A stretch of 64,000 nt of DNA from Pedobacter ureilyticus. Lineage in GTDB: Bacteria > Bacteroidota > Bacteroidia > Sphingobacteriales > Sphingobacteriaceae. Shown in pieces: positions 47,917 to 64,000 of the stretch (positions are counted from its first letter, which is position 1; each line of letters begins with the position of its first letter). The position numbers were made by a program, and so were the translations under genes. Under the pieces are notes generated by a model. The model worked only from the letters and a program-made list of their open reading frames with translations, made no database searches and had not been told where the DNA came from. The DNA is taken from positions 124,001 to 188,000 of the forward strand of contig NZ_SSHJ01000002.1 in assembly GCF_005925345.1 (NCBI RefSeq). Direction: 5' to 3'.

Positions 47917-49469
47917 TATCCTTTTCCTTTAATATCTGTTAAAATCCATTGCAACTCTCTATCGTAGTTGTTAATTCTATCTTTTAAGGTAGATTGCACC
48001 TCTACGTCTGGAAAAACGCCTCTGCCATACAAATCTTGTTGATAAATTGGAGCCATTCTATTTAATCCAAACCTTAAAGCTAATTTACTATTTTTCAAAG
48101 TAACTACAGGTAGTTTACCTGCCGCACATTGATTAAAACCACCTCCAGTTTCTGTACCCACAAAAATAGCACGACCAATTCCTTTTAAATTAGCACTTAA
48201 TAAAGAAGATGCGGAAAAACTAAATTCGTTGATCAACACATAAACTTTGCCTTTGTAGTTATTTTTATGAGGTTTTTGAGGCGTATAACCTTTCATAAAA
48301 GAGAAGAAATTACCTTCTTCATCTTCGTAAATATTACTTTTATCGTTAAAGCCGGTAAGGTAATATCTTATTTTTTTAAAACCAGTTTGATATTTATCTG
48401 TATTAAAACCACCCTTATTAATAGGTTTGGCCAAGTACACAAAATCTTTATCAGTTAAGTAAGCAAATAATGCTAAACTTGCATTTAAAGTTCCACCTGG
48501 ATTATTTCTAATATCTATTACTAAATTCTTACTTTTAGATAAAGCAATACTATCAAAGGCTTGTTTATAAAAAAGTGGAAAATTAGCCGTAGGTACACTA
48601 AAACTCTTAATCTTTAGGTAGGCAATATCTTTTTCATTATCTAAAAATTTAAAATCTAGCTGATATTCCCCATTCACTTTTGCACCTCTATGTTTTAACG
48701 TTTCCTTTATCTTTTTAACAGGTGTTGTAGCAACAGTTTTAGCTGTATCTAATTTCTTTTTAGCTTCGGCATCTTTCTTTTTATCATAAAATGAGATAAA
48801 AGTGTTGATAACTGTACTATCAGTTTTAAACTTAATAGCCACACTATCTCGTTCTAAAAAATAAATCTTATAAAGACTTGCAAGATTTCTTTCTATCCTC
48901 TTGTTTTTTGATAATGAGTTATATCCATCGTAGCTAAAACCTGCGGAAACAATGTCAAATATATTTTTTGGAGCCAAACCATCAATTTCTAAAATCTCGG
49001 TTCCGGTTTTTATTTGTTTGTTTTTACTCTTATTGTTGATAACTATCAATTTATCATCAGTAACTGCATAAGTAAATTGATCTAGGGGATAAACTTTATT
49101 TTTTGCAATTGCTCTCGCATCTTTATCTTTTATAATTACCGATGGAAAACGTAAAGCCGTATGCCCACATTTAATGGCAGCTACTACTGGCGAAAGTTTT
49201 TGATAAAATTGCTTAGTGGTCAATGGTTCATTGATCGCATTTTTTAAGCTATCAAATTTAAAATCGAGCTGTTTTTTTGAAATATACCAATACAAACCAG
49301 GATGCCCATCTTTCAAAATTTGATGAGTTAGTTCTATATCTTGTTTCAGCGCTTGTACATCATGCTTTTTCTCTGTAATGGCTAAATTATATTCCTTTAC
49401 CGACGAACAAGCAGCTAAAGAAACTGTACTTATTAACAATAAATTTCTAAAAAAACGCCTCTTAAACAT
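47916..49469 (-). CDS. S41 family peptidase lipoprotein
   Basis: 517 aa. Lipoprotein signal RRFFRNLLLISTVSLAAC (Cys about 20). Tail-specific-protease-like fold: KQGHPGLYWY-type N-domain, a PDZ-like segment (EILEIDGLAPKNIFDIVSAGF) and core strands LVIDIRNNPGGTLNASLALFAYL, VYVLINEFSFSASSLLSANLKG (Ser nucleophile near 418) and FVGTETGGGFNQ. Envelope protease, probably periplasmic. A charged linker rich in Lys (about 230-260) is inserted. Located 1 bp from nadA and overlapping thiL by one base. Confidence 0.87.
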   Translation of the reverse strand: MFKRRFFRNLLLISTVSLAACSSVKEYNLAITEKKHDVQALKQDIELTHQILKDGHPGLYWYISKKQLDFKFDSLKNAINEPLTTKQFYQKLSPVVAAIKCGHTALRFPSVIIKDKDARAIAKNKVYPLDQFTYAVTDDKLIVINNKSKNKQIKTGTEILEIDGLAPKNIFDIVSAGFSYDGYNSLSKNKRIERNLASLYKIYFLERDSVAIKFKTDSTVINTFISFYDKKKDAEAKKKLDTAKTVATTPVKKIKETLKHRGAKVNGEYQLDFKFLDNEKDIAYLKIKSFSVPTANFPLFYKQAFDSIALSKSKNLVIDIRNNPGGTLNASLALFAYLTDKDFVYLAKPINKGGFNTDKYQTGFKKIRYYLTGFNDKSNIYEDEEGNFFSFMKGYTPQKPHKNNYKGKVYVLINEFSFSASSLLSANLKGIGRAIFVGTETGGGFNQCAAGKLPVVTLKNSKLALRFGLNRMAPIYQQDLYGRGVFPDVEVQSTLKDRINNYDRELQWILTDIKGKG

Positions 49470-49470
49470 C

Positions 49471-50466
49471 TTACAAACCTAATTGTGCAGAAATTTCTAA
49501 CATTCTCTCGATAGGTTTTCTAGCTTCGTGGATAATGTTTGCTGGCACTGTAACTTCGGGCATACCGTTTTTAATACACAGGTAAAGTTTCTCTAAGGTA
49601 TTTCGTTTCATGTACGGGCAATCGTTGCAAGCACAAGCGTTGGTAGGAGGGGCTGGAATAAAAGTTTTATCCGGACAAGCCTTCTGCATCTGGTGGATAA
49701 TTCCACTTTCTGTAGCAACAATAAATTCTTTTGCATCGTTGTTGATGCTGTATTTCAACAATCCTGTGGTAGAACCAATGTAATCCGCCATTTGCAATAC
49801 AGATTCTTCACATTCTGGGTGAGCAATAAACTTCGCATTTGGGTGACGCTCCTTCAATTTGGTAATCTTCTCACGAGAGAAAATTTCGTGCACCATACAA
49901 GCACCATTCCACAAAACCAAGTCTCTACCTGTTTTTTTAGCTACCCAGGCTCCTAAGTTTTTATCCGGGCCGAAGATGATCTTCTGGTCTTTTGGCAAGC
50001 TTTCCACAATTTGTACCGCATTTGTCGACGTACACACAATATCACTCAAAGCCTTTAGTTCAGCCGTACAGTTCACATAGGTAATTACCAAATGGTCAGG
50101 ATATTTTTCCTTAAATTTTTTAAATAAATGCGGTGGACAACTATCTGCTAAAGAACATCCGGCTTTTAAATCTGGTAATAAAACCTTCTTTTCTGGCGAT
50201 AAAATCTTCGCTGTTTCGGCCATAAAGTGCACACCAGCAAAAACAATTACATCGGCTTCCGTTTTTGCAGCTTCTTGCGATAAGCCTAAACTATCACCTA
50301 TATAATCTGCAATATCTTGTATATCAGGTTCTTGGTAGTAGTGGGCTAAAATAATTGCATTCTTTTCTTTTTTTAGCTTCTCTATTTCCGCAAATAAATC
50401 CAACGTAGGATCTATTTTTTCTTCTACATAACCTTTTCTATTAAGTTCTTCTAAAATTTCCATCAC
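49471..50466 (-). CDS. nadA: Quinolinate synthase
   Basis: 331 aa. NadA condenses iminoaspartate (from NadB) with DHAP to quinolinate using a [4Fe-4S] cluster. Cluster Cys residues are visible in [10 protein letters not shown] (about 129), [10 protein letters not shown] (about 192) and [14 protein letters not shown] (about 280, with extra Cys). Substrate motifs [23 protein letters not shown] and [12 protein letters not shown] are intact. First gene of the nadA-S41-thiL operon, divergent from nadB. Candidate promoter TATCTTTA (minus strand, 50522-50515). Confidence 0.96.
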
Positions 50467-50626
50467 TATGCTTTTTAGCTACAAATGCTTTTGAAGTAGT
50501 CGTTAATTTTTTTGTAAAGATACAGAGCTTTCAACTTTATCAACGCCTCAAACAAAATATAATTTAATTAATTAAATAGATTCTTATTCTTTATTAGTGT
50601 GTTGAAACTGTTAGAAAGATTGATTA

Positions 50627-50672
50627 AAAAAATGTTGTAAAGTGAGTTATTACATAGTTACCAACATTTTTT
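50627..50672. repeat. 11-bp perfect inverted repeat in the nadA/nadB gap
   Basis: AAAAAATGTTG (50627-50637) and CAACATTTTTT (50662-50672) with a 24-nt spacer. It could be a stem, an operator for a dimeric regulator, or an AT-rich unwinding element. Confidence 0.45.
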
Positions 50673-50905
50673 GTAATTTTTTAATTTAATCTTCCATTGA
50701 TTCTCAATGTTATACTTTTTTTCGTTTTAAATTATCAATATCAAAATGTGTATTGTTAGTGATGTTGTTAAAAGTTGATAACCTCTACTAAAGTGCTTAA
50801 AAAATCTTTAAAAGATTCTGTCAAACTTGGCTTTTTACTTAGCTTTAAACAATCAAAAATAGTTGTTATGATAATTTATACATTCAATTCACACGCTTGT
50901 TAAGG

Positions 50906-50914
50906 TTATCCACA
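50906..50914 (+). other. Perfect DnaA box
   Basis: TTATCCACA, the consensus DnaA-binding 9-mer, 26 bp before the nadB start. Two further perfect copies lie within nadB at 51434-51442 (minus) and 52484-52492 (plus). Confidence 0.55.
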
Positions 50915-50939
50915 TACTTGTTATATTTTACGTAAATTA

Positions 50940-52526
50940 ATGAAGAAAGTCGATTTTTTAGTCATAGGATCGGGGATAGCCGGATTAAGTTTTGCACTTA
51001 AAGCAGCTAAGTATGGTAAGGTACTGATAGTTACCAAATCTAACGAAGATGAATCTAATACTAAATATGCCCAAGGTGGTGTAGCAGTAGTTGTTGATAA
51101 GTCAGATTCTTTTGAAAAACATATACAGGATACGTTAATTGCTGGCGATGGTTTATGCGATAAAGACATTGTGGAAATCGTAGTAAAAGAGGGTCCAGAG
51201 CGTATTCAAGAAATTATAGATTATGGAATTAACTTTGATAAGAACCCGGCTGGAGTTTTTGATTTAGCCAAAGAGGGGGGGCATTCGGAACACAGAGTGC
51301 TTCATTATAAGGATATTACAGGTTACGAAATTGAAAGTGTTTTGTTGAAGCAAATTCATCAAAACGAGAATATAGAGATCCTAACACACTATTTCTGCCT
51401 AGAGTTAATTACTCAACATCATTTAGGAAAACATGTGGATAAAAGCAGCAAAGACATTAATTGTTATGGTATTTATGCTTTTAACACCGAAATTAACCAT
51501 GTAGAGAAGATTTTGGCTAATGTAACTGTGTTAGCAAGTGGGGGAGCTGGGCATATCTATGCTAATACTACCAATCCAGTTATAGCTACTGGAGATGGTA
51601 TGGCCATGGTTTACCGAGCTAAAGGAAAGGTAAGAAATATGGAATTTATCCAGTTTCACCCAACGGCATTATATCATCCAGGAGAATATCCTTCATTCCT
51701 TGTATCTGAGGCAGTTAGAGGATTTGGTGGTGTTTTACGTAGAAGAACTGGCGAGGAATTCATGTATGAATATGATGAACGTGGCTCTTTAGCTCCTCGT
51801 GATATCGTTGCTCGTGCGATAGATAACGAAATGAAAAAATCAGGAGATGATTTTGTTTATTTGGACATTACGATGCGCAAGAAAGCTGATATTCTTACAC
51901 ATTTTCCCAACATTTATGCCAAATGTTTATCAATTGGTATAGATATGACTAAAGATTATATACCAGTTACACCTGCTTGTCATTACATGTGCGGTGGTAT
52001 TTTGGTTGACGAATATGGCAAATCCACTATCAACAATTTATATGCCTGTGGTGAGGTTTCATCAACAGGTTTACATGGTGCTAACCGTTTGGCTTCCAAT
52101 TCTTTATTAGAAGCTACTGTTTTTGCACATCGTATTTTCTTGTCGGCTATAGAGAGTTATCAACATAATGTGATACCCGCTGATATTCCAGAATGGGATG
52201 ATAAAGGCGTAATACAATCTAACGAAGATATTTTGGTGACACATAATTTAAGAGAAACTCAGAAAATAATGAGTGATTATGTAGGCATTGTACGTTCTGA
52301 TTTCAGATTAGATAGAGCGTTACGAAGATTGTATCTATTGTTTGAAGAGACAGAAGAATTCTACAAAAATAATAAGGTATCTGTAAAATTATGTGAATTA
52401 CGTAATGTAATTCAAGTGGCGTACATGGTCATTAAGTCTGCAAAAGCTAGAAAAGAAAGTAGGGGATTACATTATACCACAGATTATCCACAACATGCTA
52501 ACGAATTGGTTGATACAATTATCTAG
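50940..52526 (+). CDS. nadB: L-aspartate oxidase
   Basis: 528 aa. Oxidises L-aspartate to iminoaspartate with FAD, feeding NadA. FAD motif FLVIGSGIAGLSFALKAA (about 5-22), GGVAVVVDKSDSFEKHIQDTLIAGDGL, EGGHSEHRVLHYKDITGYEIE, ASGGAGHIYANTTNP, FIQFHPTALYHPG and ACHYMCGGILVDEYG (succinate dehydrogenase/fumarate reductase fold) and the C-terminal LYACGEVSSTGLHGANRLASNSLLEA. Slightly longer loops than in Escherichia coli NadB. Divergent from nadA across a 473-bp regulatory region; followed by a gamma-carbonic anhydrase gene. Confidence 0.97.
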   Translation: MKKVDFLVIGSGIAGLSFALKAAKYGKVLIVTKSNEDESNTKYAQGGVAVVVDKSDSFEKHIQDTLIAGDGLCDKDIVEIVVKEGPERIQEIIDYGINFDKNPAGVFDLAKEGGHSEHRVLHYKDITGYEIESVLLKQIHQNENIEILTHYFCLELITQHHLGKHVDKSSKDINCYGIYAFNTEINHVEKILANVTVLASGGAGHIYANTTNPVIATGDGMAMVYRAKGKVRNMEFIQFHPTALYHPGEYPSFLVSEAVRGFGGVLRRRTGEEFMYEYDERGSLAPRDIVARAIDNEMKKSGDDFVYLDITMRKKADILTHFPNIYAKCLSIGIDMTKDYIPVTPACHYMCGGILVDEYGKSTINNLYACGEVSSTGLHGANRLASNSLLEATVFAHRIFLSAIESYQHNVIPADIPEWDDKGVIQSNEDILVTHNLRETQKIMSDYVGIVRSDFRLDRALRRLYLLFEETEEFYKNNKVSVKLCELRNVIQVAYMVIKSAKARKESRGLHYTTDYPQHANELVDTII

Positions 52527-52584
52527 TTTTATGTAATAAGCTTTAGTTTATACGTCCAGTTTCAAATCTCAATACTCAAATCTC

Positions 52585-53094
52585 ATGTCAATTATATTAC
52601 CAGTTAAAGGAGTTAATCCAGTGTTTGGAAGCGATTGTTTTATAGCACCTAATGCCACCGTTGTTGGAGATGTTAAAGTAGGGAAAAATTGCTCTATTTG
52701 GTTTAATGCTGTAGTTAGGGGAGATGTGAATAGTATCACCATTGGTAATGAAAGTAATATACAAGACGGGGCAGTGATTCATGCTACTTACTTAAAAGCG
52801 GCTACGATTATTGGCAATAGGGTAAACGTAGGTCACAATGCAATAGTACATGGTTGTACTGTTAAAGACAATGTATTAATAGGTATGGGCGCTATAGTAA
52901 TGGATAATGCTGTGGTAGACGAATATTGTATTATTGCTGCTGGGGCTGTAGTGCTAGAAAACACCATTTGTGAGAGTGGCTATATTTATGCCGGAACGCC
53001 AGCAAAAAAAATAAAGCCCATTACTGAAGATCAAAGGGCTTTATTGAATAAACTTCCTGATAATTATATCATGTACGCCGATTGGTTCAAGTAA
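52585..53094 (+). CDS. Gamma-carbonic anhydrase family protein (YrdA-like)
   Basis: 169 aa, left-handed beta-helix of hexapeptide repeats (CFIAPNATVVGDVKVGKNCSIWFNAVVRGDVNSI-type). Zinc-binding His residues of the family appear in GAVIHATY (about 69) and VNVGHNAIVHGC (about 88, 93). Full length for the YrdA/PaaY group; carbonic-anhydrase activity is not assured for all members. Follows nadB by 58 bp; its stop is adjacent to the convergent Ig-like lipoprotein. Confidence 0.9.
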   Translation: MSIILPVKGVNPVFGSDCFIAPNATVVGDVKVGKNCSIWFNAVVRGDVNSITIGNESNIQDGAVIHATYLKAATIIGNRVNVGHNAIVHGCTVKDNVLIGMGAIVMDNAVVDEYCIIAAGAVVLENTICESGYIYAGTPAKKIKPITEDQRALLNKLPDNYIMYADWFK

Positions 53095-54837
53095 CTACAT
53101 CCTGCGGAAGCCACCAACGTTGCCTGTGGGCTGGTTGTTGTTGGAAGGTGCTGGCCGTGTAGAGTTGTTATTTTCTACCTTTTCTTTCGGTTTCGGCACA
53201 GGTAGTGGGGCTACCGAAGGAATAGTGATGGTTTCGCTTCTATCCCAATTAGCTCTAATAGATAGTTCCTTATTATTGTACCAAATTGCTTCTGGTTGCG
53301 TACCTAATTTTAAATTTCCTGTATCCCAAATACCATTACTGTTAGCGTCGTAAACAATTCTGCCAAAGTATATACCTTGTTTTAAATTATTTAGTTTAAC
53401 TAGTGATTTCTTTTTGATTGGATAACTGCTAATAACGTTATTGTCTTTATTTACAATCTCTAGTATATAGCTTTTTGAAGTATCTGCTGGTTCCACTGTT
53501 AACGTCAGAGAGCCATAATCATTGGCATCAGCTAATGTAAAATTCCTTTTTAATTCTTTGTTTTTAGTATCAAAAATTGCATTTATGGCATTTTCTCTTA
53601 TTAATAAAATGTATTCTTCTTTAGCTCTCCACTTATATTTGATATGATATTTTAACAGGTTAGTGCTATCTTTTTCCAACGTAAATTTTCTAGGGATGCT
53701 GTCTTCAAGCAATATAATTTTACTTTCGTCGATATTTTTTATTGGAAAGTTAAAACTAATGGTTAAATCTCTAAATGGATTTAAGTTGCCTCCTTCTAAA
53801 TTGTCAGAAATGCTGATTACCCTATTATAAGTATCTCTTTTTGATCTACTAAATTTTACAGTATCTAAGGTCTTTCCTTCGTCTTTTACAGCAATTTTTA
53901 CCGAGTCAAAAGATAAGTCTGCTAACCACAAGCTTACTGAATCTTTAGTTTTGTTGAATTGAAATTGTTTGTTTTGGTCTACGCTAGGAGGGAAGATTAC
54001 TGTTAAGTCGGGGTTATTTAGCTTTTTGTTAAAGCTCATAAAAATGCTTCCATCTGCATTTAATTTTCTGTCGTTAACTCTAAAATTAGGAGCAATTTCT
54101 TTAAAAACACTTAAGCGTAAGCTATCAATATTTTTATCTAATACAATCGAATCTTTGATGAAACCAATTTCGTCACTTATTTGCTGGTAAATTCTGTCGC
54201 CACCACCTTTTTCTTTTAGAGCATATACTTTATAGGTATCTTTCTTTAAATTTTTAAGTTTAAAGTTTCCACTGCTGTCAGTTAGCGTAAAAATTGGTGC
54301 TCTTTTTTTGCCAAACAAACTGTCCCTAGATAAAGGAAGTATAAAAACAGTACTTTCTATTTCTGCTTCTCCGGTTAGTGCATTGGTTACATTTCCGCTC
54401 AAGCTTAACGAATCTATGGTGGGGCCAGTGGCAAAAGCATAGCTGAAGTTTTTAAGTACATTGCCTTCATTTAGATCTACGATAGCTTTGCCGAAATTTA
54501 AAGTGTAGGTCGTATTTTTCTCTAAAGAATCCGATAAACTAATTTCAAGTCTTTTCAACTTAACTTTTAACTCTGGAATTTTGTCTAGCTCTGGAGAAAT
54601 TGAAAATTCTTTAAATTCATTACTTAATTTAATGTATTCATCAAATTCTATGATAATTTTTTTAGCTGTGAAATTCGTGGTTAAATTTTCTGGCGTCATT
54701 TTTAGTACCTTCGGCGGAGTAGTATCTCTTGGCCCGCCTTCCGGAGATTTCATAGCGGCACACCCATAGATAAAACTAATTGCGCCGACAAGCACAAAAA
54801 AAATGAGGTAAAAAGGGCAGTTTCTGTTTTTAAGCAT
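53095..54837 (-). CDS. Ig-like domain lipoprotein
   Basis: 580 aa. Signal with lipobox IYGC (Cys about 26). Residues after SPEGGPRDTTPPKVLKMTPEN form the start of Bacterial Ig-like (Big_5) domains: TTPPKVLKMTPENLTTNF is the canonical entry. Further strands (TYTLNFGKAIVDLNEGN, FSYAFATGPTIDSLSLSG) and a carboxypeptidase-regulatory-like stretch (TDSSGNFKLKNLKKDTYKVYALKEKG) follow. C-terminus is Pro/Asn-rich (PAPSNNNQPTGNVGGFRRM). Surface or periplasmic structural role; common in Sphingobacteriaceae, function unknown. Confidence 0.85.
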   Translation of the reverse strand: MLKNRNCPFYLIFFVLVGAISFIYGCAAMKSPEGGPRDTTPPKVLKMTPENLTTNFTAKKIIIEFDEYIKLSNEFKEFSISPELDKIPELKVKLKRLEISLSDSLEKNTTYTLNFGKAIVDLNEGNVLKNFSYAFATGPTIDSLSLSGNVTNALTGEAEIESTVFILPLSRDSLFGKKRAPIFTLTDSSGNFKLKNLKKDTYKVYALKEKGGGDRIYQQISDEIGFIKDSIVLDKNIDSLRLSVFKEIAPNFRVNDRKLNADGSIFMSFNKKLNNPDLTVIFPPSVDQNKQFQFNKTKDSVSLWLADLSFDSVKIAVKDEGKTLDTVKFSRSKRDTYNRVISISDNLEGGNLNPFRDLTISFNFPIKNIDESKIILLEDSIPRKFTLEKDSTNLLKYHIKYKWRAKEEYILLIRENAINAIFDTKNKELKRNFTLADANDYGSLTLTVEPADTSKSYILEIVNKDNNVISSYPIKKKSLVKLNNLKQGIYFGRIVYDANSNGIWDTGNLKLGTQPEAIWYNNKELSIRANWDRSETITIPSVAPLPVPKPKEKVENNNSTRPAPSNNNQPTGNVGGFRRM

Positions 54838-54958
54838 TTATAGGCGTTTTAATCGATTTTTACCTTTTTTTAAATGATAATATTAAAATTTTGAGTTATG
54901 CTTTTATAACGCTTTATTTTAATCGATTATTTTATATGTTTAAGTATTTGATTTTCAA

Positions 54959-56821
54959 TTATTTAGATATATGAACCATCAAAACAGAAATATCTGAAGG
55001 AGAAACACCAGAAATTCTTGATGCTTGGCCTAAGGTTCGAGGTTTTATTTTCAATAATTTTTCTCTGGCTTCTTTTGATAAAGATACTAAACTGTTATAA
55101 TCAAAATCAGGATTAATTGCTTTGTCTTCCATCTTCTGCATTTTGTTTACAATCTCCTGTTCTTTTTCAAAATATGCTTCATATTTGATTTTAATTTCGG
55201 CTTGCTCTACGGTTTCTATTTCAAATTTATTAAGTAGTTCGTTAAAAGGTTCGCTTACTTTTCTTATATCATTAATATTAACTTGTGGTCTGCTTAGTAC
55301 GTTAAATAATTTTACGTTCTGCGTTAGAGGCGAAGTACCCAATTCTTCCATTAATGAATTAGCTTCAGACATTTCTATACCCTGTTTTTTTGTAAAAGCT
55401 ACGATATCATCCGAATCTTTTACTTTCTGTTTTACCAATTCCAAACGGTCATCGCCTATCAAACCTAATTCGTAAGCAATAGGAGTGAGGCGAATATCAG
55501 CATTATCTTGACGTAATAATAGACGATGTTCTGCCCTAGAAGTAAACATTCTATAGGGTTCTTCTGTGCCTTTAGTTACCAAATCATCTATCAAAACACC
55601 AATATATGATTCAGAACGCTTCATTATAAGCTCATGTTTGTCATATACCTTCTGGTGTGCGTTAATACCTGCTATAAACCCTTGACTAGCAGCCTCTTCG
55701 TAGCCCGTTGTGCCGTTTATTTGACCAGCAAAGAACAAATTACTGATTAATTTGGTTTCTAGCGTTAATGAGAGTTGGGTAGGTGGAAAATAGTCGTATT
55801 CTATGGCATATCCTGGTCTAAACATCTTTGCGTTTTCGAAACCTGGTATTTGGGTTAAGGCTTTATATTGTACATCTTCCGGTAATGATGTAGAAAAGCC
55901 GTTTACGTAAATCTCACAAGTATGCCATCCTTCGGGTTCTACGAAAATTTGATGACGTTCACGTTCAGCAAATCTATTAATTTTATCTTCAATAGATGGG
56001 CAATAACGAGGACCTAATCCTTTAATTCTGCCAGTAAACATGGGTGATTTTTCGAAGCCTTCTTTTAAAGTTTCGTGTACCTTATCATTGGTATAAGTAA
56101 TCCAACAGCAACGTTGATCTGTTGGAAGTGCTACGTTTGTATATGAAAATCTGCCACGTTCTTCATCACCCCATTGTTCTTCCATTAAACTATAATTTAA
56201 CGAACGACCATCAATTCTGGGAGGGGTGCCCGTTTTCATTCTTCCTGCTTCGAAGCCTAATTCCACTAATTGTTCGGTTAAGCCCGTAGCAGATTTTTCT
56301 CCAGTTCTGCCACCGCCCATTTTTTTCTCGCCAATATGGATGATACCATTTAAGAATGTACCATTGGTAAGCACTACAGATTTAGCTTTAATCTCTACTC
56401 CTAAATTAGTTTTTACACCAACAACTGTATTGTGTTTAATTAATAGCGAGCTTACCATTTCTTGCCAAAAGTCGATATTTTCAGTGCGTTCTAATGCTAA
56501 TCTCCATTCTTCTGCAAATCTTTTCCTATCATTTTGTGTACGTGGGCTCCACATTGCCGGGCCTTTGGATTTGTTTAACATCCTAAATTGGATGGTTGTT
56601 TTATCAGCTATGATACCCGAGTAGCCACCCATGGCATCAATTTCTCTAACTATTTGACCTTTCGCTACACCACCCATTGCCGGGTTGCAACTCATCTGTG
56701 CAATAGTTTCCATGTTCATGGTGATTAGCAAAACCGATGAACCTAAATTTGCAGCAGCGGCAGCAGCTTCACAACCTGCATGGCCGGCGCCAACTACAAT
56801 TACGTCGTATTCTTTAAACAT
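54959..56821 (-). CDS. mnmG: tRNA uridine-5-carboxymethylaminomethyl(34) synthase MnmG (GidA)
   Basis: 620 aa. FAD-binding enzyme that, with MnmE, installs the cmnm5 group on wobble uridine-34. Motifs: [19 protein letters not shown] (about 8-26), [48 protein letters not shown] (Cys), [32 protein letters not shown] and [21 protein letters not shown]-terminal helical domain about 540-620 for MnmE/tRNA binding. Two parS palindromes lie immediately upstream of its ATG, a common setting near the replication origin. Confidence 0.97.
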
Positions 56822-56832
56822 ATATTTTTCGA

Positions 56833-56848
56833 TGTTTCACGTGAAACA
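56833..56848. other. parS site (ParB-binding palindrome)
   Basis: TGTTTCACGTGAAACA matches the bacterial parS consensus at all 16 positions. It lies 12 bp upstream of the mnmG ATG, so ParB bound here would sit in the mnmG promoter/leader. Centre-to-centre distance to the second site is 43 bp. Confidence 0.93.
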
Positions 56849-56875
56849 TTAGTTTTATTTTGTTTTTTTTATTTG

Positions 56876-56891
56876 TGTTTCACGTGAAACA
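56876..56891. other. parS site (ParB-binding palindrome) within a 34-bp perfect palindrome
   Basis: A second perfect TGTTTCACGTGAAACA. Symmetry extends outward without mismatch to 56867-56900, giving a 34-bp perfect palindrome ending in TTTTATTTG/CAAATAAAA arms. The plus-strand tail TTTTATTTTT after it could also act as a terminator, although the ABC-F gene here reads left. Confidence 0.93.
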
Positions 56892-56902
56892 CAAATAAAA
56901 TT

Positions 56903-58765
56903 TTATTTTTCAGACAACTCCATCCATCTTTCCATATCTGTTTCAATAGCTTTATTGATGTTTATTATCGTTTCTGATATTTCTTGGATTTGAATATAGT
57001 TAGATGGATCTATTTGATTTAGTTCTTGCGTTAAGGTTTTAATTTTATTTTCGTTTTCTGCTAAAGCCTCTTCTAGTTTTTTAAATTCTTGTTGCTCTTT
57101 AAAGCTAAGTTTATTGCCGCTTGATGCTTGGGTTGGTTTTTGTTCTTCTACTTTTTGTTTCCTTGAAGCGGCTTCTTTTTCTATTTCTAAACTATTCCGA
57201 TGTTCAGAATAATTTCCGTTAAATATTTTCACATTTCCATTTCCTTCCATAATAAAAAGCTGGTCGCTCATCTTGTCTAATAAATACCTATCATGAGAAA
57301 CGAGTATCAATATACCTGGAAAGTTTTCTAAAAATTCTTCTAAAACGTTTAGGGTGTCAATATCCAAATCGTTGGTAGGTTCATCTAAAATTAGAAAGTT
57401 TGGGTTTTGCATCAGCACTTTCATTAAATGTAAGCGCTTCTTTTCTCCACCACTCAATTTCTCCACTAATCCATGTTGTTTTTTTGGAGGAAATAAAAAT
57501 AAAGTAAGTAGGGCAGAAGCGGAGATTGTTTGACCATCTGCCATTTTGATATACTCAGCATCTGCCTTTACAATGTCAATTACTCTTTCTTTTTCGTTGA
57601 AACTTAATCCTCCTTGCTTGTAATATCCATATTGGGTAGTTTCTCCTATATCAACTTTACCCTTGTCAGGATTTAAGTTTCCAGTAATGATATTTAAAAG
57701 TGTAGATTTTCCAGTTCCATTTTTACCAGCTAAACCAATTCTATCTCCTTTTTTAAAAACATAAGAAAAATCATTGATGATAGTAACATTGTTAAAACTT
57801 TGGTTAATGCGGTCAAGCTCTAAAATCTTATTTCCCTGTCGGGCCATTTTTACATTTAAAGTAACTTTTTGATGATCTACTCTTTGTTTAGTTTTTTCTT
57901 CTAAATCATAAAAAGCGTTTTGTCTAGCAACAGATTTTGTTCCTCTAGCTTGGGGCATTCTGCGCATCCATTCTAGTTCTTTCTTTAAAAGATTTTTATT
58001 TTTTTGAAAGGTAGCATCATCTTGTGCTTCTCTTTCTGCTTTCTTTTCTAAGAAATACGCATAGTTGCCATTGTAAGTAAAAGTTTTTCCTCTTTCTAGC
58101 TCTACTATGGTGTTGCAAACATTATCTAAAAAATACCTATCGTGAGTAACTAATAACAAAGTTTTGGCTCCAGAAGTAAGTATTTTTTCTAGCCATTCAA
58201 TCGTATCAATATCTAAATGGTTGGTTGGCTCATCTAAAACGTAAATTTCAGGATCTTCAATTAAAAGTTTAGCTAAAGCTAGCCTTTTACGCTGACCACC
58301 AGATAAAGTATCTATTTTTTGCTGCAGATGATTGATGCCCATTCTGCTTAAAATAGTTTTGATTTGATGTTCGTATTCCCAAGCGTTATGTTCGCTTAAT
58401 TCTTCGTATAATCTATTGAGCTTCTTCTCATCAGGATGCTCTTCCTCAATTAATTCTTCATATTCTTTAATTAGCTGCTGCTGTTTGTTTTCGGTAGAGA
58501 AAATGAAGTCGCTAATCGTTGCGTTTTCTGGAAAAGAAGGCTCTTGGTCTAAGAAGCCAATTTTGGTTGATTTATTTTTAACTATCTTTCCCTCGAGAGG
58601 AGCAAAGCGCTCTGCAAGTAGTTTCATCAGAGTGCTTTTTCCAGCACCGTTTACGCCAACTAGCGCCACACGCTGGCCGGCATTAATTCCTAAAGTTAAA
58701 TTCTTAAAAAGCCATTCGTCGTGATAGGCGTGGCCAAGCCCTTCTGCTGCAATTAGTGTACTCAA
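56903..58765 (-). CDS. ABC-F family ATPase (Uup/YdiF-like)
   Basis: 620 aa from TTG 58765; no ATG nearby. Two ABC domains: Walker A VGVNGAGKSTLMKLL (about 37-50), signature LSGGQRKRLALAKLL, Walker B DEPTNHLDIDT; second Walker A AGKNGTGKSTLLNII, signature LSGGEKKRLHLMK, Walker B DEPTNDLDIDT. A 70-80-residue linker and a C-terminal coiled coil (about 540-620, Lys/Glu-rich) follow, like Uup. ABC-F proteins act on ribosomes or DNA/recombination; some confer antibiotic resistance but there is no evidence for that here. Confidence 0.92.
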   Translation of the reverse strand: MSTLIAAEGLGHAYHDEWLFKNLTLGINAGQRVALVGVNGAGKSTLMKLLAERFAPLEGKIVKNKSTKIGFLDQEPSFPENATISDFIFSTENKQQQLIKEYEELIEEEHPDEKKLNRLYEELSEHNAWEYEHQIKTILSRMGINHLQQKIDTLSGGQRKRLALAKLLIEDPEIYVLDEPTNHLDIDTIEWLEKILTSGAKTLLLVTHDRYFLDNVCNTIVELERGKTFTYNGNYAYFLEKKAEREAQDDATFQKNKNLLKKELEWMRRMPQARGTKSVARQNAFYDLEEKTKQRVDHQKVTLNVKMARQGNKILELDRINQSFNNVTIINDFSYVFKKGDRIGLAGKNGTGKSTLLNIITGNLNPDKGKVDIGETTQYGYYKQGGLSFNEKERVIDIVKADAEYIKMADGQTISASALLTLFLFPPKKQHGLVEKLSGGEKKRLHLMKVLMQNPNFLILDEPTNDLDIDTLNVLEEFLENFPGILILVSHDRYLLDKMSDQLFIMEGNGNVKIFNGNYSEHRNSLEIEKEAASRKQKVEEQKPTQASSGNKLSFKEQQEFKKLEEALAENENKIKTLTQELNQIDPSNYIQIQEISETIININKAIETDMERWMELSEK

Positions 58766-58972
58766 GATGCTCTGAAACGATTTATACTAACAAAACCATC
58801 CCAGTCTATTAGGATAGCCTCATTACATTTAAAAAACAATTATTTATTATGATAAAATTGCTACAAAAGTACGTAATAATAACTGCTTAATGCTTTTGCA
58901 GCTAGTAGATTAGTTGGTAAACGAAGAAATATTACGAAAGTGTGTTGTAGTTTGATGTAGCGCTTTTGGTTT

Positions 58973-59659
58973 TTAGTTCAAATTGAAGTTGTCGTTTCTA
59001 ATATTCATTACGTTTGATGCAGCTAGGATAGATACGATTAAAGCCCCAATAACTATAGCAATAAGCAATTGTATTGTAGAGTACAAATTGGTTCCTCTTA
59101 CAATTTTTTGAGATTCTTCCTTCAGTTGTTCGCCTACTACAGTTTGTACTTTGGTAAGCTGAGAAAGGGAATTAGAAATATCAAAGAAAGAGCGCTCTGC
59201 ACTGTCATCGTACATTTTTCGCAAGGCAGTTTTATCTACAGCATGTGCATTTAACAAGAGCTGTTTCTCCAATAATTTGTTGTCTAGAAGTTTTACTTTC
59301 AACGCTGTTAAGTGGTTTTTTTCATTTTTAACTAGAAATGTTTGTTCATACTTGGCTAAAAGCGTATCGATATGTTTATCGTAAGTTTTAAGCTTAGCGT
59401 TAAGCTCTTGTGCTGATAGTTTATTTTGATCGCTGTAAACAAAGGTTTCTAAAAGGAAGCGCTTAGCATACAATTTTTCGGAAATGTAGAAAAGATCTGT
59501 TGCGGGTACCAATCTGTCGTTATAAAGCGAAGTAAATGCCTTTTCCATATTCTTAATGCTTCTATCTTCTAATAAACGGATGAGGATAGTACAGGCCATA
59601 ATTAAGAAAAGCAAAATGGCAATCTTGGTTTTTTGCTTTAGCGAATAAGCGAATTTCAT
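58973..59659 (-). CDS. Membrane four-helix-bundle sensor-domain protein without output domain
   Basis: 228 aa. Two transmembrane segments (about 12-31 and 198-217) enclose an extracytoplasmic helical region with the 4HB_MCP pattern (ILIRLLEDRSIKNMEKAFTSLYNDRLVP, AKRFLLETFVYSDQNK, LRKMYDDSAERSFFDISNSLSQLTKVQTVVGEQL). Only eleven residues follow the second TM, so there is no HAMP, kinase or MCP signalling domain. It may work with a partner protein or be a truncated receptor. Stand-alone gene. Confidence 0.72.
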   Translation of the reverse strand: MKFAYSLKQKTKIAILLFLIMACTILIRLLEDRSIKNMEKAFTSLYNDRLVPATDLFYISEKLYAKRFLLETFVYSDQNKLSAQELNAKLKTYDKHIDTLLAKYEQTFLVKNEKNHLTALKVKLLDNKLLEKQLLLNAHAVDKTALRKMYDDSAERSFFDISNSLSQLTKVQTVVGEQLKEESQKIVRGTNLYSTIQLLIAIVIGALIVSILAASNVMNIRNDNFNLN

Positions 59660-59769
59660 ATCTGGTTGTTATAAATTCACAAGATAGCTAATTTTTCGAT
59701 AGGATAGGTGTTTTGATAAACCCTAGTAACTGTGTTTTATTACTTAACAAGAGTTTTGGGTCTTGATTC

Positions 59770-59880
59770 GTCATTTCGAAGGAGGAACGACTGAGAAATC
59801 TTTAGAGGGATAATTTCTGATAAATGACCCAAAGATTTAGCGTAGCTTTCTTTTAGTTCTCGACTACGCTCGAAGACGAC
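59770..59880. repeat. Dispersed intergenic repeat (GTCATTTCGA type), copy 1
   Basis: GTCATTTCGAAGGAGGAACGAC at the left and GTTCTCGACTACGCTCGAAGACGAC at the right are inverted relatives; inner AAATCTTT/CAAAGATTT arms (59797-59804, 59831-59838 area) add a second stem. The layout matches REP-like palindromic elements common in Bacteroidota genomes. A second copy is at 61819-61894. Confidence 0.6.
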
Positions 59881-60124
59881 ATTCCTAATACAACTAAAAA
59901 AATAAGTCACTGATAAAAAACACAAACATCCAAAACTCACGTTACTTAGCACAAAAAATTTATACTTAGGGGAAGAAATGCGCTGAAGTATACGTTCTAT
60001 AAAGCTGTTTTATGTTGTATAAATTAGCCGCAAAGTAAAATAAGAGCTACGCTAAGAACGCAAAGGTTAGATTGTTTTCTTTTGTTTATCAACTTCCGAT
60101 CTTCGAAATTATACCATAGGCTTA

Positions 60125-60168
60125 GCTTTGACAAATTTGTATCCCATTTGTTAGGAGTTTGTCAAAGC
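60125..60168. repeat. 11-bp perfect inverted repeat GCTTTGACAAA/TTTGTCAAAGC
   Basis: GCTTTGACAAA (60125-60135) and TTTGTCAAAGC (60158-60168) with a 22-nt loop, in gene-free DNA. Looks like a second family of dispersed hairpins; only one copy in this window. Confidence 0.55.
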
Positions 60169-60317
60169 GGCTTAGCACCACAGCTCTTAGTTAATTAAAC
60201 CCGATTGGAACGAACACGTTTGGCAAACACATAGGTTTGCCATAAAGTAAAGTGTAAAGCGGGGCTGAATAGCCTATGAAAAAGCGGTATTGTTTTGCTA
60301 GCTGTAAAATAGCTAAG

Positions 60318-60346
60318 GCAAAAAGAAAGCGGGCATCCACCCGCTT
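60318..60346 (-). terminator. Intrinsic terminator of the GIN-domain gene
   Basis: On the minus strand AAGCGGG (60346-60340) pairs with CCCGCTT (60333-60327) around a 6-nt loop and is followed by TCTTTTTG. It lies 43 bp after the stop of the leftward GIN-domain gene. Confidence 0.85.
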
Positions 60347-60388
60347 GATTAACTAAAACTAAACTAAATTTATATGTGAATATGAATT

Positions 60389-61021
60389 TTAAAAAATGGT
60401 TAGCACATCGCCACTAGGCAGCTCAGTACTTACTGACTGTTTTTGTGCTACTGCAGTATTTTTAGCTTGAATGCTGCTGTTCTCTGCCGTAAATTTATCC
60501 ATGTTGATAGATGATGTGCTGTTGATAGCAGCAATATAATCTGTTGTTTTACCGCTTAATGTTAAGTTAGATTGTCCGTTTACGTTAGCGAACAAATCGA
60601 TAGTATTGGTATTTAAAATTGCTTTAGCTTGGTCTTTTAAAGTAACGGCTAAGCTAAGTGCACTGAATTTTCCATTGGTTTTAATTACAGCATTATCGCT
60701 AGCGGTAATTTCGTTTAACTGGTTTGCGTAAACTACTACAGTTAAGGTTTCTTTATCGAAAGAGCTAATTCTTAGTTCGCCATTTTTTTCTTGCACCAAA
60801 GCATTTTTCGAATAATAGCTATCGTAAACTTGTACACTTTGATTTGGGCTTTGTACCAAAATTACCTCTACGTTACCGGCAACGTTTAATTTGTTGAATT
60901 TTTTAACTTCGCCTACAACAGTTACTTTTTTGGTTGCTGTAGCATTTACTAAAGATGTAGCGCTTGCGCTAATAGCTACTGTTAAGATGGCTGCGAATAG
61001 ATTTTTAATAGAAGTCTTCAT
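60389..61021 (-). CDS. Secreted GIN-domain (DUF2807) protein
   Basis: 210 aa. Signal peptide MKTSIKNLFAAILTVAISASATSLVNA. The mature part shows DUF2807/GIN beta-solenoid coils: FNKLNVAGNVEVILVQSPNQSV, LRISSFDKETLTVVVYAN, EITASDNAVIKTNG, LNTNTIDLFANVNGQSNLTLSGK, with a Gln/Thr-rich tail lacking the usual second GIN repeat end. Possibly a periplasmic adhesin-like protein. Controlled perhaps by the tandem repeat at 61144-61174; own terminator at 60318-60346. Confidence 0.8.
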   Translation of the reverse strand: MKTSIKNLFAAILTVAISASATSLVNATATKKVTVVGEVKKFNKLNVAGNVEVILVQSPNQSVQVYDSYYSKNALVQEKNGELRISSFDKETLTVVVYANQLNEITASDNAVIKTNGKFSALSLAVTLKDQAKAILNTNTIDLFANVNGQSNLTLSGKTTDYIAAINSTSSINMDKFTAENSSIQAKNTAVAQKQSVSTELPSGDVLTIF

Positions 61022-61143
61022 ATCTTAAATATTTTAATGTCTGTAATTATTTTTCTGTTTTTAAACTTGTTACATCTATAAGACTGCAACAATTACAAAA
61101 GGTTGCACCGCTTCTTGGCGTTTTATACCATTAGGAGTAAAGG

Positions 61144-61174
61144 TTCGACCAACGCCAGTAATTTTTCGACCAAC
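61144..61174 (-). promoter_or_regulatory. Tandem GTTGGTCGAA operator-like repeat
   Basis: On the minus strand GTTGGTCGAA occurs twice (61174-61165 and 61153-61144) with a 21-bp period, i.e. two DNA turns on one face, 123-153 bp before the GIN-domain gene. Direct repeats of this period and a GTT core are typical of LytTR-type regulator sites. An ATTTTTCG/CGAAAAAT stem (61161-61188) overlaps the distal copy. Confidence 0.5.
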
Positions 61175-61305
61175 AGGCACCGAAAAATTCAAGTAAAATG
61201 AAAAAGGTTGATTTAAGTATAGTAGCCGAAGCAGTCTAGCGTTGCACGAAGAATGTGCAAGTTAGGATTGGTAAAGGAATGTTAACAGAAAATAGCGTGC
61301 TGAAA

Positions 61306-61728
61306 TTAGTTCCTAGTTGCCAAATAGAAGTCTTCTTTCGCTGTCATTTCTATTTTGGCTTTTTTGGTTTTATCTCGGTAACCTAGCAGATGAAGCGTTC
61401 CGTGGATCATGATGCGGCATAATTCATCGTGAGTAGTGGCATTATTTTGCTTGGCATTATCTTTAACTCTATCAATACTGATGAATATATCTCCCAAAAT
61501 GGTTTTAAGCTCTTCTGAGTTGTCGAAAGTGATTACATCGGTATAATAGTCATGCTGAAGAAAATCTTGGTTTACACGCAATAAATATTCGTCAGAACAG
61601 AAAATGAAATTCAGCTCTGCTAATTGGTAGCCTTCAACTTCGATAGTTTCCTGCAACCATTTTTTTATGGCGATTTTTCCTTTTAAGGTGTAGGTAACGT
61701 CTTCTGTAAAGAAATTGATTTTAGCCAT
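61306..61728 (-). CDS. ybeY: Endoribonuclease YbeY
   Basis: 140 aa from ATG 61728 (MAKINFFTEDVTYTLKGK); a start 51 bp upstream gives a non-homologous leader and is rejected. YbeY trims and checks 16S rRNA 3' ends. Core: LAELNFIFCSDEYLLRVNQDFLQHDYYTDVITFD-type segment, GDIFISIDRVKDNAKQ and the zinc motif HGTLHLLGYRDKT, where the third His of HGxLHLxGxxH is an Asp. This replacement occurs in Bacteroidota YbeY. Reads left, 173 bp downstream of the DUF4175 gene. Confidence 0.92.
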   Translation of the reverse strand: MAKINFFTEDVTYTLKGKIAIKKWLQETIEVEGYQLAELNFIFCSDEYLLRVNQDFLQHDYYTDVITFDNSEELKTILGDIFISIDRVKDNAKQNNATTHDELCRIMIHGTLHLLGYRDKTKKAKIEMTAKEDFYLATRN

Positions 61729-61818
61729 TGGATTTAAGTTAGAAGGCAAAAGTAAAAAAGAATTAACCACAAAGAACACAAAGAGATTGCTTTTTTGATA
61801 TAGTTTTGAAATATGTTT

Positions 61819-61894
61819 GTCATTCTGAACGACATGGAAAAATCTACAAGTAAGCAGAACTAGACTAACGGATTTCTCCTAGCGTCGAAATGAC
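61819..61894. repeat. Dispersed intergenic repeat (GTCATTTCGA type), copy 2
   Basis: GTCATTCTGAACGAC ... GAAAAATCT on the left and GGATTTCTCC ... CGTCGAAATGAC on the right form an imperfect palindrome. Similar to copy 1 (59770-59880), between the DUF4175 and ybeY genes. Confidence 0.6.
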
Positions 61895-61901
61895 GATTTG
61901 A

Positions 61902-64000
61902 TTATTGTTTTGTAGAGTTTAGCAGCCTAAAATACTCAGCAACCTTGTTCTTATAATAGTAATTTAAGTTTGGTGGCAGTTTTTGGATGAGTTCGCTTTC
62001 GCTTTGCATGCTCTTGTTAAACTTTTCTAGCATTTGCTGATAAGATGGAGGAAATTGTTTAGCGGCGTTGCTTTCACGCTTTTCGTCCTGCTCCTGTTCT
62101 CGTTGTGCCTTTTCTGCATCTAGCAGTTTTACCATTAAGTTTTTCTGACGGTTAATGGTCTCTTGTGTAATTCGTTTGTTTACCAAGTCCAGTTCAGATT
62201 GTTTCATTTCCTGCACTGTTTGGTTCAAATTACCCAAAGCACCTTTACCATCTTTATTGTCGTCTTTGTTGATTTTCTCTAGCGCTTCTCTAATCATTTG
62301 CTGCTGCTGTGCCATTTTCGCAAATTCTTGGCTCATTTGACCTTTCGGAACAGTGCCCATATTTCCTTCACGTTCCATTTTCTCTTTGGCTTGCTGCATA
62401 TTTTTGTTCAGCTGTTCTTGCATTTGTTGCAATTGCTGCATGCCCTGTTTTTGTTTGCCTTTGCCACCTTTTGCATTTTTCATGGCGTTTTGTAATTGCT
62501 CCAAAGCTTCGTTTAACATCAAAGCCAAATTGTTTAAGGAGGTCATGGCAAATTGTTGCGAGCGGTTGGCTTCACCAGTTCTTCTATCGCCAAGAAAATC
62601 TATCGCTTTGCCAATATTAAAGTTGATTTTTTCTACTTCGGTATTTACGGCAGTCTCAATTTGCGGCACACGTTTGCTCAACGAAAACAAGCTATCGGCA
62701 ATGGTTTTCATATTGTCGCGTATCATATTCTGCTTTTGGGCTTGCGAAACATAAGCCGGATCGGTAGTGCCCATTTTACGCAAAGCCAACATTACCTTTT
62801 CTTGCTCAAAAGAAGTGCTCAATAAGTTTTCTAATAACTTCCGTAGCTCTTGCGCATTTACCTTGTTTTCCTGTTCTGCACCAGCTTGTTGCTGTTCTTG
62901 CATTTTTTGCGCCAATTGTTGCATTTGGTCGCTAGCCTGCTGCTGTTTTTCTGCTGCTTTTTGTTTGTTGTTTTGGTTCAGTTGCTCTTGGCTTTCTTGT
63001 TGGTTTTTCTCTATTTCGCTGGTTTCTTTCTCCGGATTTTTATAATCGTTGGGGCGTTCCAAAGCCTGATTTTTCTTGTCCAAATCTTGCAATTCTTTTT
63101 TCAAATCCTTGAAATCTTTATTGAGCTGCTCTTGCTTGTCTTTTAAATCTTGAGAAGATGAGTTATTGTTCTTGCTTTGGTTTGACAAGTCTTTTTGCTC
63201 TTTAGACATCTCATTCAAACGATCGATTTTATTTTGTAGACTTTGCTCAAATTCCAATTGCTTGTAAAGCTCTAAAATACGATCTAGCTCATTTTTTACA
63301 GATTTATTGTCCATCTGCATTTTAGAAAGCTCTTCTCTAGTTTGATCTTTCCTGTTTTGATCCATCAATTGTTGGAGCTTTTGCAGAAGCTCTTTCGTCT
63401 TTTCATCCAACACATTGTTAAAAAGCTCGTCGATTTTTTCCTGCTTTTCTTTTAGCTCTTCTGTTAATTGTCCGTTTTCCTGCTTCTCGAAGTTGTTTTT
63501 CTCGTTCAGGTCTTTGATATCCTTAACCGCCTGATCCAATTGTTTTTGTTTGTCTAGCAATTGCTCAATCTGCTTTTTATCTTCAAAGTCGAGCTGTTTT
63601 TTATCCAGTAAACTTTCGCTCAGTTTTTTGCTGTCTTTTTCAATGCTGTTGGCCAGTTTAATGGTTTGCTCCATTTTTTGCTTCAAAGATTGGCTACCTT
63701 CGGCTAGTTTGGCGGCAATTTCTTGTTGCGTTGGGGGCTGATATGTTTTGATTTCCGAACGGGTAACTTTAGCTCCGTTTACACCGTCATTATCGGCTAC
63801 TTCAAAAAAGTAATCGATGGTTTGGCCAGGTTTAACAGTTAGCCCATCCAAATTCCAGAGGTAGAAAAAATTATTTTCTGTTTGCCGGTTTTTAGTGGCA
63901 ATAGCTTTGGCGCCTTGGGCAACAACTTTATTTTTATCTTTAATTTGGTACCTGAATTTTAAAGAAGAAAATCCGTAATCATCGTTAATTACACCAGTAA
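61902..64000 (-). CDS. DUF4175 family protein, C-terminal part
   Basis: Partial: the frame is open to the right edge, so the 5' end is missing and at least 699 codons are present. At the right edge VINDDYGFSSLKFRYQIKD and FYLWNLDGLTVKPGQTIDYFFEVADNDGV are the conserved DUF4175 beta-region; the remainder is a very long coiled coil rich in Gln, Lys and Glu (about the last 600 residues, with runs such as KQQQASDQMQQLAQKMQEQQQ-type blocks). The N-terminal membrane segments expected for the family lie outside. An inner-membrane structural protein in Bacteroidota; function unknown. Confidence 0.85.
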   Translation of the reverse strand, partial: TGVINDDYGFSSLKFRYQIKDKNKVVAQGAKAIATKNRQTENNFFYLWNLDGLTVKPGQTIDYFFEVADNDGVNGAKVTRSEIKTYQPPTQQEIAAKLAEGSQSLKQKMEQTIKLANSIEKDSKKLSESLLDKKQLDFEDKKQIEQLLDKQKQLDQAVKDIKDLNEKNNFEKQENGQLTEELKEKQEKIDELFNNVLDEKTKELLQKLQQLMDQNRKDQTREELSKMQMDNKSVKNELDRILELYKQLEFEQSLQNKIDRLNEMSKEQKDLSNQSKNNNSSSQDLKDKQEQLNKDFKDLKKELQDLDKKNQALERPNDYKNPEKETSEIEKNQQESQEQLNQNNKQKAAEKQQQASDQMQQLAQKMQEQQQAGAEQENKVNAQELRKLLENLLSTSFEQEKVMLALRKMGTTDPAYVSQAQKQNMIRDNMKTIADSLFSLSKRVPQIETAVNTEVEKINFNIGKAIDFLGDRRTGEANRSQQFAMTSLNNLALMLNEALEQLQNAMKNAKGGKGKQKQGMQQLQQMQEQLNKNMQQAKEKMEREGNMGTVPKGQMSQEFAKMAQQQQMIREALEKINKDDNKDGKGALGNLNQTVQEMKQSELDLVNKRITQETINRQKNLMVKLLDAEKAQREQEQDEKRESNAAKQFPPSYQQMLEKFNKSMQSESELIQKLPPNLNYYYKNKVAEYFRLLNSTKQ

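What the first reader, a model, noticed from the sequence alone, without database searches (positions are those of the whole stretch)
56833..56900. Two perfect parS sites directly upstream of mnmG, one in a 34-bp perfect palindrome
TGTTTCACGTGAAACA occurs twice, 43 bp centre to centre, with every base matching the consensus of the chromosomal ParABS system. parS sites cluster near the replication origin in most bacteria and mnmG (gidA) is a classic origin neighbour. ParB binding 12 bp from the mnmG start could also affect its transcription. The second copy's symmetry extends to 34 bp, more than parS needs.
Basis: partly seen in the sequence, partly recalled or inferred. Interest (0 to 1): 0.7.

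Follow-up and report, generated by a model that had tools for sequence, protein, structure and literature searches.

The report
Paired parS centromere at chromosome origin
The two sites look like the chromosome's only ParB-binding centromere, a conserved pair beside the replication origin, and the longer palindrome around one of them looks like an RNA hairpin at the end of the neighbouring gene, built around the centromere site.

Summary
Confirmed, with one addition. Two perfect parS 16-mers lie 43 bp apart between abcF and mnmG and are the only such sites found in the 4.98-Mb genome, which has a parB behind a parA-like gene. The contig's cumulative GC-skew minimum is about 6 kb away. In two closed relatives the sampled skew switches at this locus although dnaA is 0.77-0.95 Mb away. 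It is a family trait: 140 of 145 distinct abcF-mnmG gaps hold at least two parS-like sites, 5 hold one. In 26 of 26 genomes checked, all exact sites fall within 8.4 kb.

New point: the 34-bp palindrome is not simply a bigger parS. Flanks pair far above chance where a parS lies 5-25 nt after the abcF stop codon (187 of 280 cells, shuffle 101); four other classes are near expectation by that count, with small excesses by run length. Arms differ between lineages yet stay complementary; one site per genus agrees. Likeliest: an abcF gene-end RNA hairpin with parS as apex. It lacks a U-tract; the RNA step is inferred.

The parts
56833..56848 (.). parS copy 1 (mnmG-proximal), TGTTTCACGTGAAACA, 11 nt upstream of the mnmG ATG
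56876..56891 (.). parS copy 2 (abcF-proximal), TGTTTCACGTGAAACA
56867..56900 (-). 34-bp perfect palindrome around parS copy 2; predicted 15-bp RNA stem with 4-nt loop right after the abcF stop codon (-15.9 kcal/mol, z -6.1)
54959..56821 (-). mnmG (gidA), gene downstream of the parS pair
   Evidence: TIGR00136 835.7 bits
56903..58765 (-). ABC-F ATPase gene (abcF), upstream of the parS pair; over the cut-off of the ABC-F model NF000355 (390.9 vs 380 bits), below those of EttA and Uup; start codon uncertain
50467..50939 (.). candidate oriC: AT-rich 473-bp divergent gap nadA(-)/nadB(+) at the cumulative-skew minimum, with conserved non-coding repeats resembling DnaA boxes
50906..50914 (+). perfect DnaA box TTATCCACA in the candidate oriC (two more nearby at 51434 - and 52484 +)

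Best explanation
The two sites are the chromosome's ParABS centromere: a tight parS pair, the only one found in the genome, about 6 kb from the probable replication origin. ParB dimers load there and ParA moves the locus after replication. The longer palindrome around the abcF-proximal copy is not part of the ParB site. It is the stem of an RNA hairpin just after the abcF stop codon, with parS as its upper part, so one sequence serves as DNA centromere and as gene-end RNA element, probably limiting read-through into mnmG or protecting the abcF mRNA 3' end. Shown by computation: the sites, their uniqueness, conservation, origin position, and complementary arms concentrated at one distance from the stop codon. 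Inferred: ParB binding, transcription of the hairpin, and what it does.
For: Sites and uniqueness. ParB over cut-off behind a ParA-like gene, homologous to solved ParB/Spo0J proteins: (best 7.5e-52). Skew minimum of contig C12 at about 175 kb with a shallow valley to 189 kb, parS at 180.8 kb. G170: sampled skew negative through 5.28 Mb, positive from 5.48 Mb, parS at 5.386 Mb. G113: negative through 2.98 Mb, positive from 3.18 Mb, parS at 3.084 Mb. Conservation: abcF upstream of mnmG in 154 of 160 loci, some of them duplicates of one genome; at least 2 sites in 140 of 145 distinct gaps. Hairpin: 35 sites 5-25 nt after the abcF stop, not filtered for symmetry, 187 of 280 flank cells paired vs 101 shuffled; the other four classes 64 vs 61, 89 vs 84, 183 vs 189, 366 vs 373. 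One site per genus, 11 genera: 54.8 of 88 vs 32.2, largest shuffle 50. Double-sided changes that keep pairing between genomes of one genus. Of 175 predicted gene ends with free downstream DNA on C12, 6 have a perfect stem of 15 or more; this is one.
Against: No U-tract follows the stem in the abcF direction; the tail is A-rich. The arms show no excess of G-U over A-C mismatches (13 vs 18), so the data do not prove an RNA rather than a DNA hairpin. By run length the other classes also show a small excess: flank runs of 4 or more in 13 of 139 mnmG-proximal sites (shuffle 4.3, max 11), 7 of 62 sites over 40 nt away (0.9, max 4) and 4 of 32 under 5 nt (0.5, max 4), and 14 of 88 sites of other Bacteroidota families (2.4, max 7). 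The 5-25 nt limit was set after seeing the list; the earlier 5-40 nt class gave 14 of 55 with runs of 6 or more (shuffle 0.39, max 3). Many relatives have no extension, among them nearly all sites 26-40 nt after the stop. The two parS copies in one RNA could instead pair with each other (-22.9 kcal/mol). No ChIP or RNA data.
Confidence: 0.7

Rival explanations
1. Ordinary parS pair only; the palindrome beyond 16 bp is chance in AT-rich DNA.
For: The flanks are AT-rich, and over the first 8 positions the mnmG-proximal copies show no more pairing than shuffled flanks (366 vs 373).
Against: Extension of 6 or more bp in 14 of 55 sites located 5-40 nt after the abcF stop (shuffle mean 0.39, max 3) against 1 of 139 mnmG-proximal sites; the one-per-genus test holds.
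Confidence: 0.07
2. A DNA-level role: a longer inverted repeat aids cruciform extrusion, ParB loading or another DNA-binding protein.
For: The 40-nt strand also folds as DNA (-12.9 kcal/mol); no G-U excess over A-C; in some loci the palindrome sits far from the abcF stop (L010, L014, L016); small run-length excesses in other parS classes and other families.
Against: Arm sequences differ between lineages, which argues against sequence recognition, and the strong signal depends on distance from a stop codon.
Confidence: 0.13
3. Mutational by-product: template switching at a short perfect palindrome copies one flank into the other.
For: Such a process would also give complementary arms that change together (recalled mechanism, not from a call). 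The small run-length excess at other parS copies and in other families is what a general process would give.
Against: The same core in the other four classes shows pairing near expectation; the flanks of the mnmG-proximal copies may be constrained by the mnmG leader, so this is not fully excluded.
Confidence: 0.15
4. The pair works mainly as an operator of mnmG: ParB at the start region represses mnmG and couples tRNA modification to origin copy number.
For: The mnmG-proximal core lies 8-22 nt before the ATG in most gaps; a TAnnTTTG box within 28 nt upstream of it in 18 of 145, shuffle 1.8, opposite strand 3; ParB represses promoters beside parS3/parS4 in Pseudomonas aeruginosa (PMC5521831, passages).
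Against: By eye no such box in this genome; 14 gaps have spacings of 25 bp or less, leaving about 10 bp between the cores and no room for a promoter there.
Confidence: 0.15

Closest known systems
Chromosomal ParABS centromere (parS, TGTTTCACGTGAAACA)
   Same: Same 16-mer, a ParB gene behind a ParA-like gene in the genome, origin-proximal position.
   Different: Only two sites found in the genome, 43 bp apart, in a gap conserved over the family; two papers give ranges of 1 to 20 and 1 to 20-23 sites per genome (PMC10197239, PMC7333895; passages).
oriC beside mnmG with dnaA elsewhere, reported for Flavobacteriaceae (PMC11278836, PMC12843772; passages)
   Same: Origin predicted next to mnmG and checked by GC skew; dnaA does not match the skew in PMC11278836 (whose figure legend labels the two the other way round).
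   Different: Here a different family; the candidate origin is the nadA/nadB gap about 6 kb away, and the parS pair is described.
Intrinsic terminator / 3'-end stem-loop
   Same: Perfect stem-loop directly after a stop codon; some parS copies elsewhere sit in terminator-like hairpins with T-tracts (L011, L175, L193).
   Different: Here AT-rich, without a U-tract, and with a ParB site as its apex.

Membership tests
ParABS parS centromere | 16-bp palindrome TGTTTCACGTGAAACA | tested here: met
   two perfect copies
ParABS parS centromere | ParB of the chromosomal family next to ParA in the same genome | tested here: met
   one TIGR00180 match, 183.8 bits, over cut-off; ParB homologous to ParB/Spo0J structures; a ParA-like ORF ends 9 bp upstream (recognised by eye, not scanned against a library)
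ParABS parS centromere | Clustering near the replication origin | tested here: met
   skew minimum at the locus in the own contig and sampled skew switch in two closed relatives
ParABS parS centromere | ParB binds and spreads from the sites in vivo | not testable with these tools
   needs ChIP-seq
Intrinsic (Rho-independent) terminator | Stem-loop directly downstream of a gene | tested here: met
Intrinsic (Rho-independent) terminator | G+C-rich stem followed by a U-tract in the gene's direction | tested here: not met
   AT-rich stem, A-rich tail in the abcF direction; the scan sees a T-tail only on the opposite strand
Bacterial oriC (candidate at 50467-50939) | Cluster of DnaA boxes, AT-rich, at skew minimum | tested here: inconclusive
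   AT 0.76, skew minimum, one perfect box inside and two nearby; of 19 relatives with both nadA and nadB found, 7 have a perfect box in the gap and 12 have none; looser repeats conserved in 11 aligned genomes

The most novel reading that the evidence does not exclude
Bacterial centromere sites are repeatedly recruited as the apex of gene-end hairpins, in several phyla, so that transcription ends at or just before the ParB loading site and RNA polymerase does not run through it; parS would then be a two-level element, DNA centromere and RNA terminator or processing signal.
Probability: 0.22. Interest if true: 0.7.

Novelty: new variant of a known kind. Interest (0 to 1): 0.5.

Why it matters
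A chromosome of about 5 Mb that appears to rely on one tight pair of parS at a conserved gene gap is a very simple natural centromere to study in Bacteroidota; in this genome no match over the cut-off to the canonical SMC model was found. The pair also marks the probable origin where dnaA does not. If the hairpin reading holds, it links transcription end and ParB loading in one sequence, and the question of ParB-polymerase conflict could be tested there with small mutations in a non-pathogenic laboratory relative.

Tried and rejected
Rejected: many scattered parS copies; a palindrome demanded by ParB (other parS classes mostly lack it); a classic intrinsic terminator (no U-tract); a known RNA family (no Rfam match over gathering score in 49000-64000); dnaA as origin marker in the two relatives sampled. 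Led nowhere: literature searches for parS within terminators or hairpins (no relevant title or abstract start in the listings; only PMC5521831 opened, by passages) and for parS with mnmG in Bacteroidetes. The G-U against A-C strand test did not separate RNA from DNA. The 2007 parS survey cited by others is not held. Outside the family the link to stop codons is weak: of the 10 sites with runs of 6 or more, 6 are among the 92 sites within 40 nt after a long open frame and 4 among the other 116.

Dropped or selected rows: of 164 loci, 4 had no mnmG start; 6 of the remaining 160 had no abcF match, in part because the fetched stretch was short; identical gaps were collapsed to 145. By my count (loci L001-L034, L163, L164) 29 of the 145 rows were drawn by the parS search itself; the other 116 were drawn by mnmG, 111 of them with at least two sites and 5 with one. 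One search listed only part of its 192 matching genomes, so the 145 are not all of them.

Full report
WHAT IS THERE. The window holds two exact copies of TGTTTCACGTGAAACA at 56833-56848 and 56876-56891, 43 bp apart, and no other match at up to three mismatches, where 0.41 are expected. The second copy is the centre of a 34-bp perfect palindrome, 56867-56900. Both lie in the 81-bp gap between an ABC-F ATPase gene (abcF, minus strand, 56903-58765) and mnmG (minus strand, 54959-56821). In the direction of transcription the palindrome begins 2 nt after the abcF stop codon; the other copy ends 11 nt before the mnmG ATG.

GENOME. The window is part of contig C12 of a 4.98-Mb, 52-contig assembly. No other parS was found in the genome, at 2 mismatches of the 16-mer or 1 mismatch of the degenerate 14-mer. 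One ParB gene passes the family cut-off, directly behind a ParA-like gene recognised by eye, and it is homologous to solved ParB/Spo0J proteins.

ORIGIN. On C12 (first 388 of 399 kb read) the cumulative GC skew falls to a minimum near 175 kb, with a shallow valley to 189 kb; parS is at 180.8 kb. Three of the seven TTATMCACA boxes on the stretch read sit at 174.9, 175.4 and 176.5 kb, the first within the 473-bp nadA/nadB gap (window 50467-50939), the other two beyond it. That gap is AT-rich and keeps conserved repeats in 11 aligned genomes of the genus, the own included. Of 20 relatives fetched, 18 have nadA and nadB beside mnmG with a gap of 399-534 bp; in one the gap is 1,949 bp, and in one (L339) nadA is turned round and nadB was not found. 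A perfect box is in the gap of 7 of the 19 relatives with both genes and absent in 12, so this stays a candidate origin, about 6 kb from parS. In closed genome G170 the sampled skew is negative through 5.28 Mb and positive from 5.48 Mb, with parS at 5.386 Mb and dnaA about 0.95 Mb away. In G113, another genus, the switch lies between 3.0 and 3.18 Mb, parS at 3.084 Mb, dnaA 0.77 Mb away. Over the 25 single-contig genomes, taken as circles (my arithmetic), dnaA is within 20 kb of parS in 9 genomes, all of genus g16, and 0.37 to 1.48 Mb away in 14; for G160 and G007 the contig length was not shown. Origins beside mnmG with dnaA elsewhere are already in print for Flavobacteriaceae (PMC11278836, PMC12843772; passages).

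FAMILY PATTERN. With exact 16-mers only 34 of 201 family genomes score; GTTCCACGTGGAAC and mixed forms are common in the gaps. Reading the gap itself, abcF lies upstream of mnmG in 154 of 160 loci, some of them duplicates of one genome. Of 145 distinct gaps, 131 hold two parS-like sites (up to 2 mismatches of GTTYCACGTGRAAC), 7 three, 2 four and 5 one. Genome-wide, in 26 genomes (25 on one contig, plus the own), 21 have exactly two exact sites, 4 have three and 1 has seven; in each genome all lie within 8.4 kb. Tight pairs are patchy in the phylum: 43 of 247 genomes, own family included.

THE EXTRA PALINDROME. I compared the flanks of each parS core with flanks shuffled among sites of the same class. 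Where the abcF-proximal site lies 5-25 nt after the abcF stop (35 sites, not filtered for symmetry), 187 of 280 cells of the first eight flanking positions pair, against 101 in shuffles. Sites 26-40 nt after the stop: 64 vs 61. Less than 5 nt: 89 vs 84. More than 40 nt: 183 vs 189. mnmG-proximal sites: 366 vs 373. The 5-25 limit was set after the first look; the class used first, 5-40 nt, had runs of 6 or more in 14 of 55 sites (shuffle 0.39, max 3) against 1 of 139 mnmG-proximal sites. Drawing one site per genus (11 genera) gives 54.8 of 88 against 32.2, largest shuffle 50. Extensions of at least 6 bp in the 5-25 nt class come from five genera, with different arm sequences, and genomes of one genus show up to seven positions where both arms changed and pairing held. 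This fits a selected stem-loop at a gene end better than a longer protein site. On C12 only 6 of 175 predicted gene ends with free downstream DNA have a perfect stem of 15 bp or more within 60 nt, and this is one of them. The 40-nt RNA folds at -15.9 kcal/mol, z -6.1.

BEYOND THE FAMILY. Among tight-pair loci from all phyla, 10 of 208 sites have an extension of 6 or more (shuffle 0.34, max 3). Six of these 10 are among the 92 sites within 40 nt after a long open frame and four among the other 116, so the link to stop codons is weak there. In other Bacteroidota families 14 of 88 sites have runs of 4 or more (shuffle 2.4, max 7) and 3 have 6 or more (0.3, max 3). Several look like true terminators with T-tracts (L175, L193; also L011 in this family).

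LIMITS. The hairpin here has no U-tract, and mismatches do not favour G-U over A-C (13 vs 18), so an RNA role is inferred from location, not proven. By run length, small excesses exist in the other parS classes too: runs of 4 or more in 13 of 139 mnmG-proximal sites (4.3 expected, max 11), 7 of 62 over 40 nt away (0.9, max 4), 4 of 32 under 5 nt (0.5, max 4). A mutational origin of the arms is therefore not excluded. In an RNA carrying both copies they can pair with each other with similar energy. ParB binding, spreading and any effect on mnmG are untested. A TAnnTTTG promoter-like box (motif recalled) lies within 28 nt upstream of the mnmG-proximal site in 18 of 145 relatives (shuffle 1.8, max 8, opposite strand 3), by eye not here; in Pseudomonas aeruginosa ParB represses promoters next to two intergenic parS (PMC5521831, passages).

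VERDICT. By sequence a real ParABS centromere, in an unusually compact and conserved form, plus a hairpin built on one of its sites and concentrated at one distance from the upstream stop codon. The first is a new member of a known kind; the second is a new variant that three searches of the open literature did not show in print.

Noticed in passing
window 50467-50939: AT-rich nadA/nadB divergent gap at the GC-skew minimum with DnaA-box-like repeats conserved in the genus: candidate oriC.
   Followed up: partly
own genome G000: No match over cut-off to the canonical SMC model TIGR02168 (best 25 bits against 567; 10 of 14 control genomes over cut-off); other condensin families not tested. A paper reports no known condensin in its two gut Bacteroidetes (PMC10197239, passages).
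   Followed up: partly
L011 position 1501 (genome G192): A third parS about 6.8 kb from the mnmG pair sits inside a terminator-like hairpin with a T-tract.
   Followed up: no
L007, L047, L085 and others, about 220 nt after abcF: In other genera a short apparently coding stretch (by eye) is inserted between abcF and the parS pair, giving gaps near 290 nt.
   Followed up: no
L244 positions 1538-2433: Nine parS sites within about 0.9 kb upstream of mnmG in a Terrimonas genome.
   Followed up: no
L211 7851 and L193 6120: parS with 15- and 16-bp flanking inverted repeats in a proteobacterium and a Chitinophaga.
   Followed up: partly
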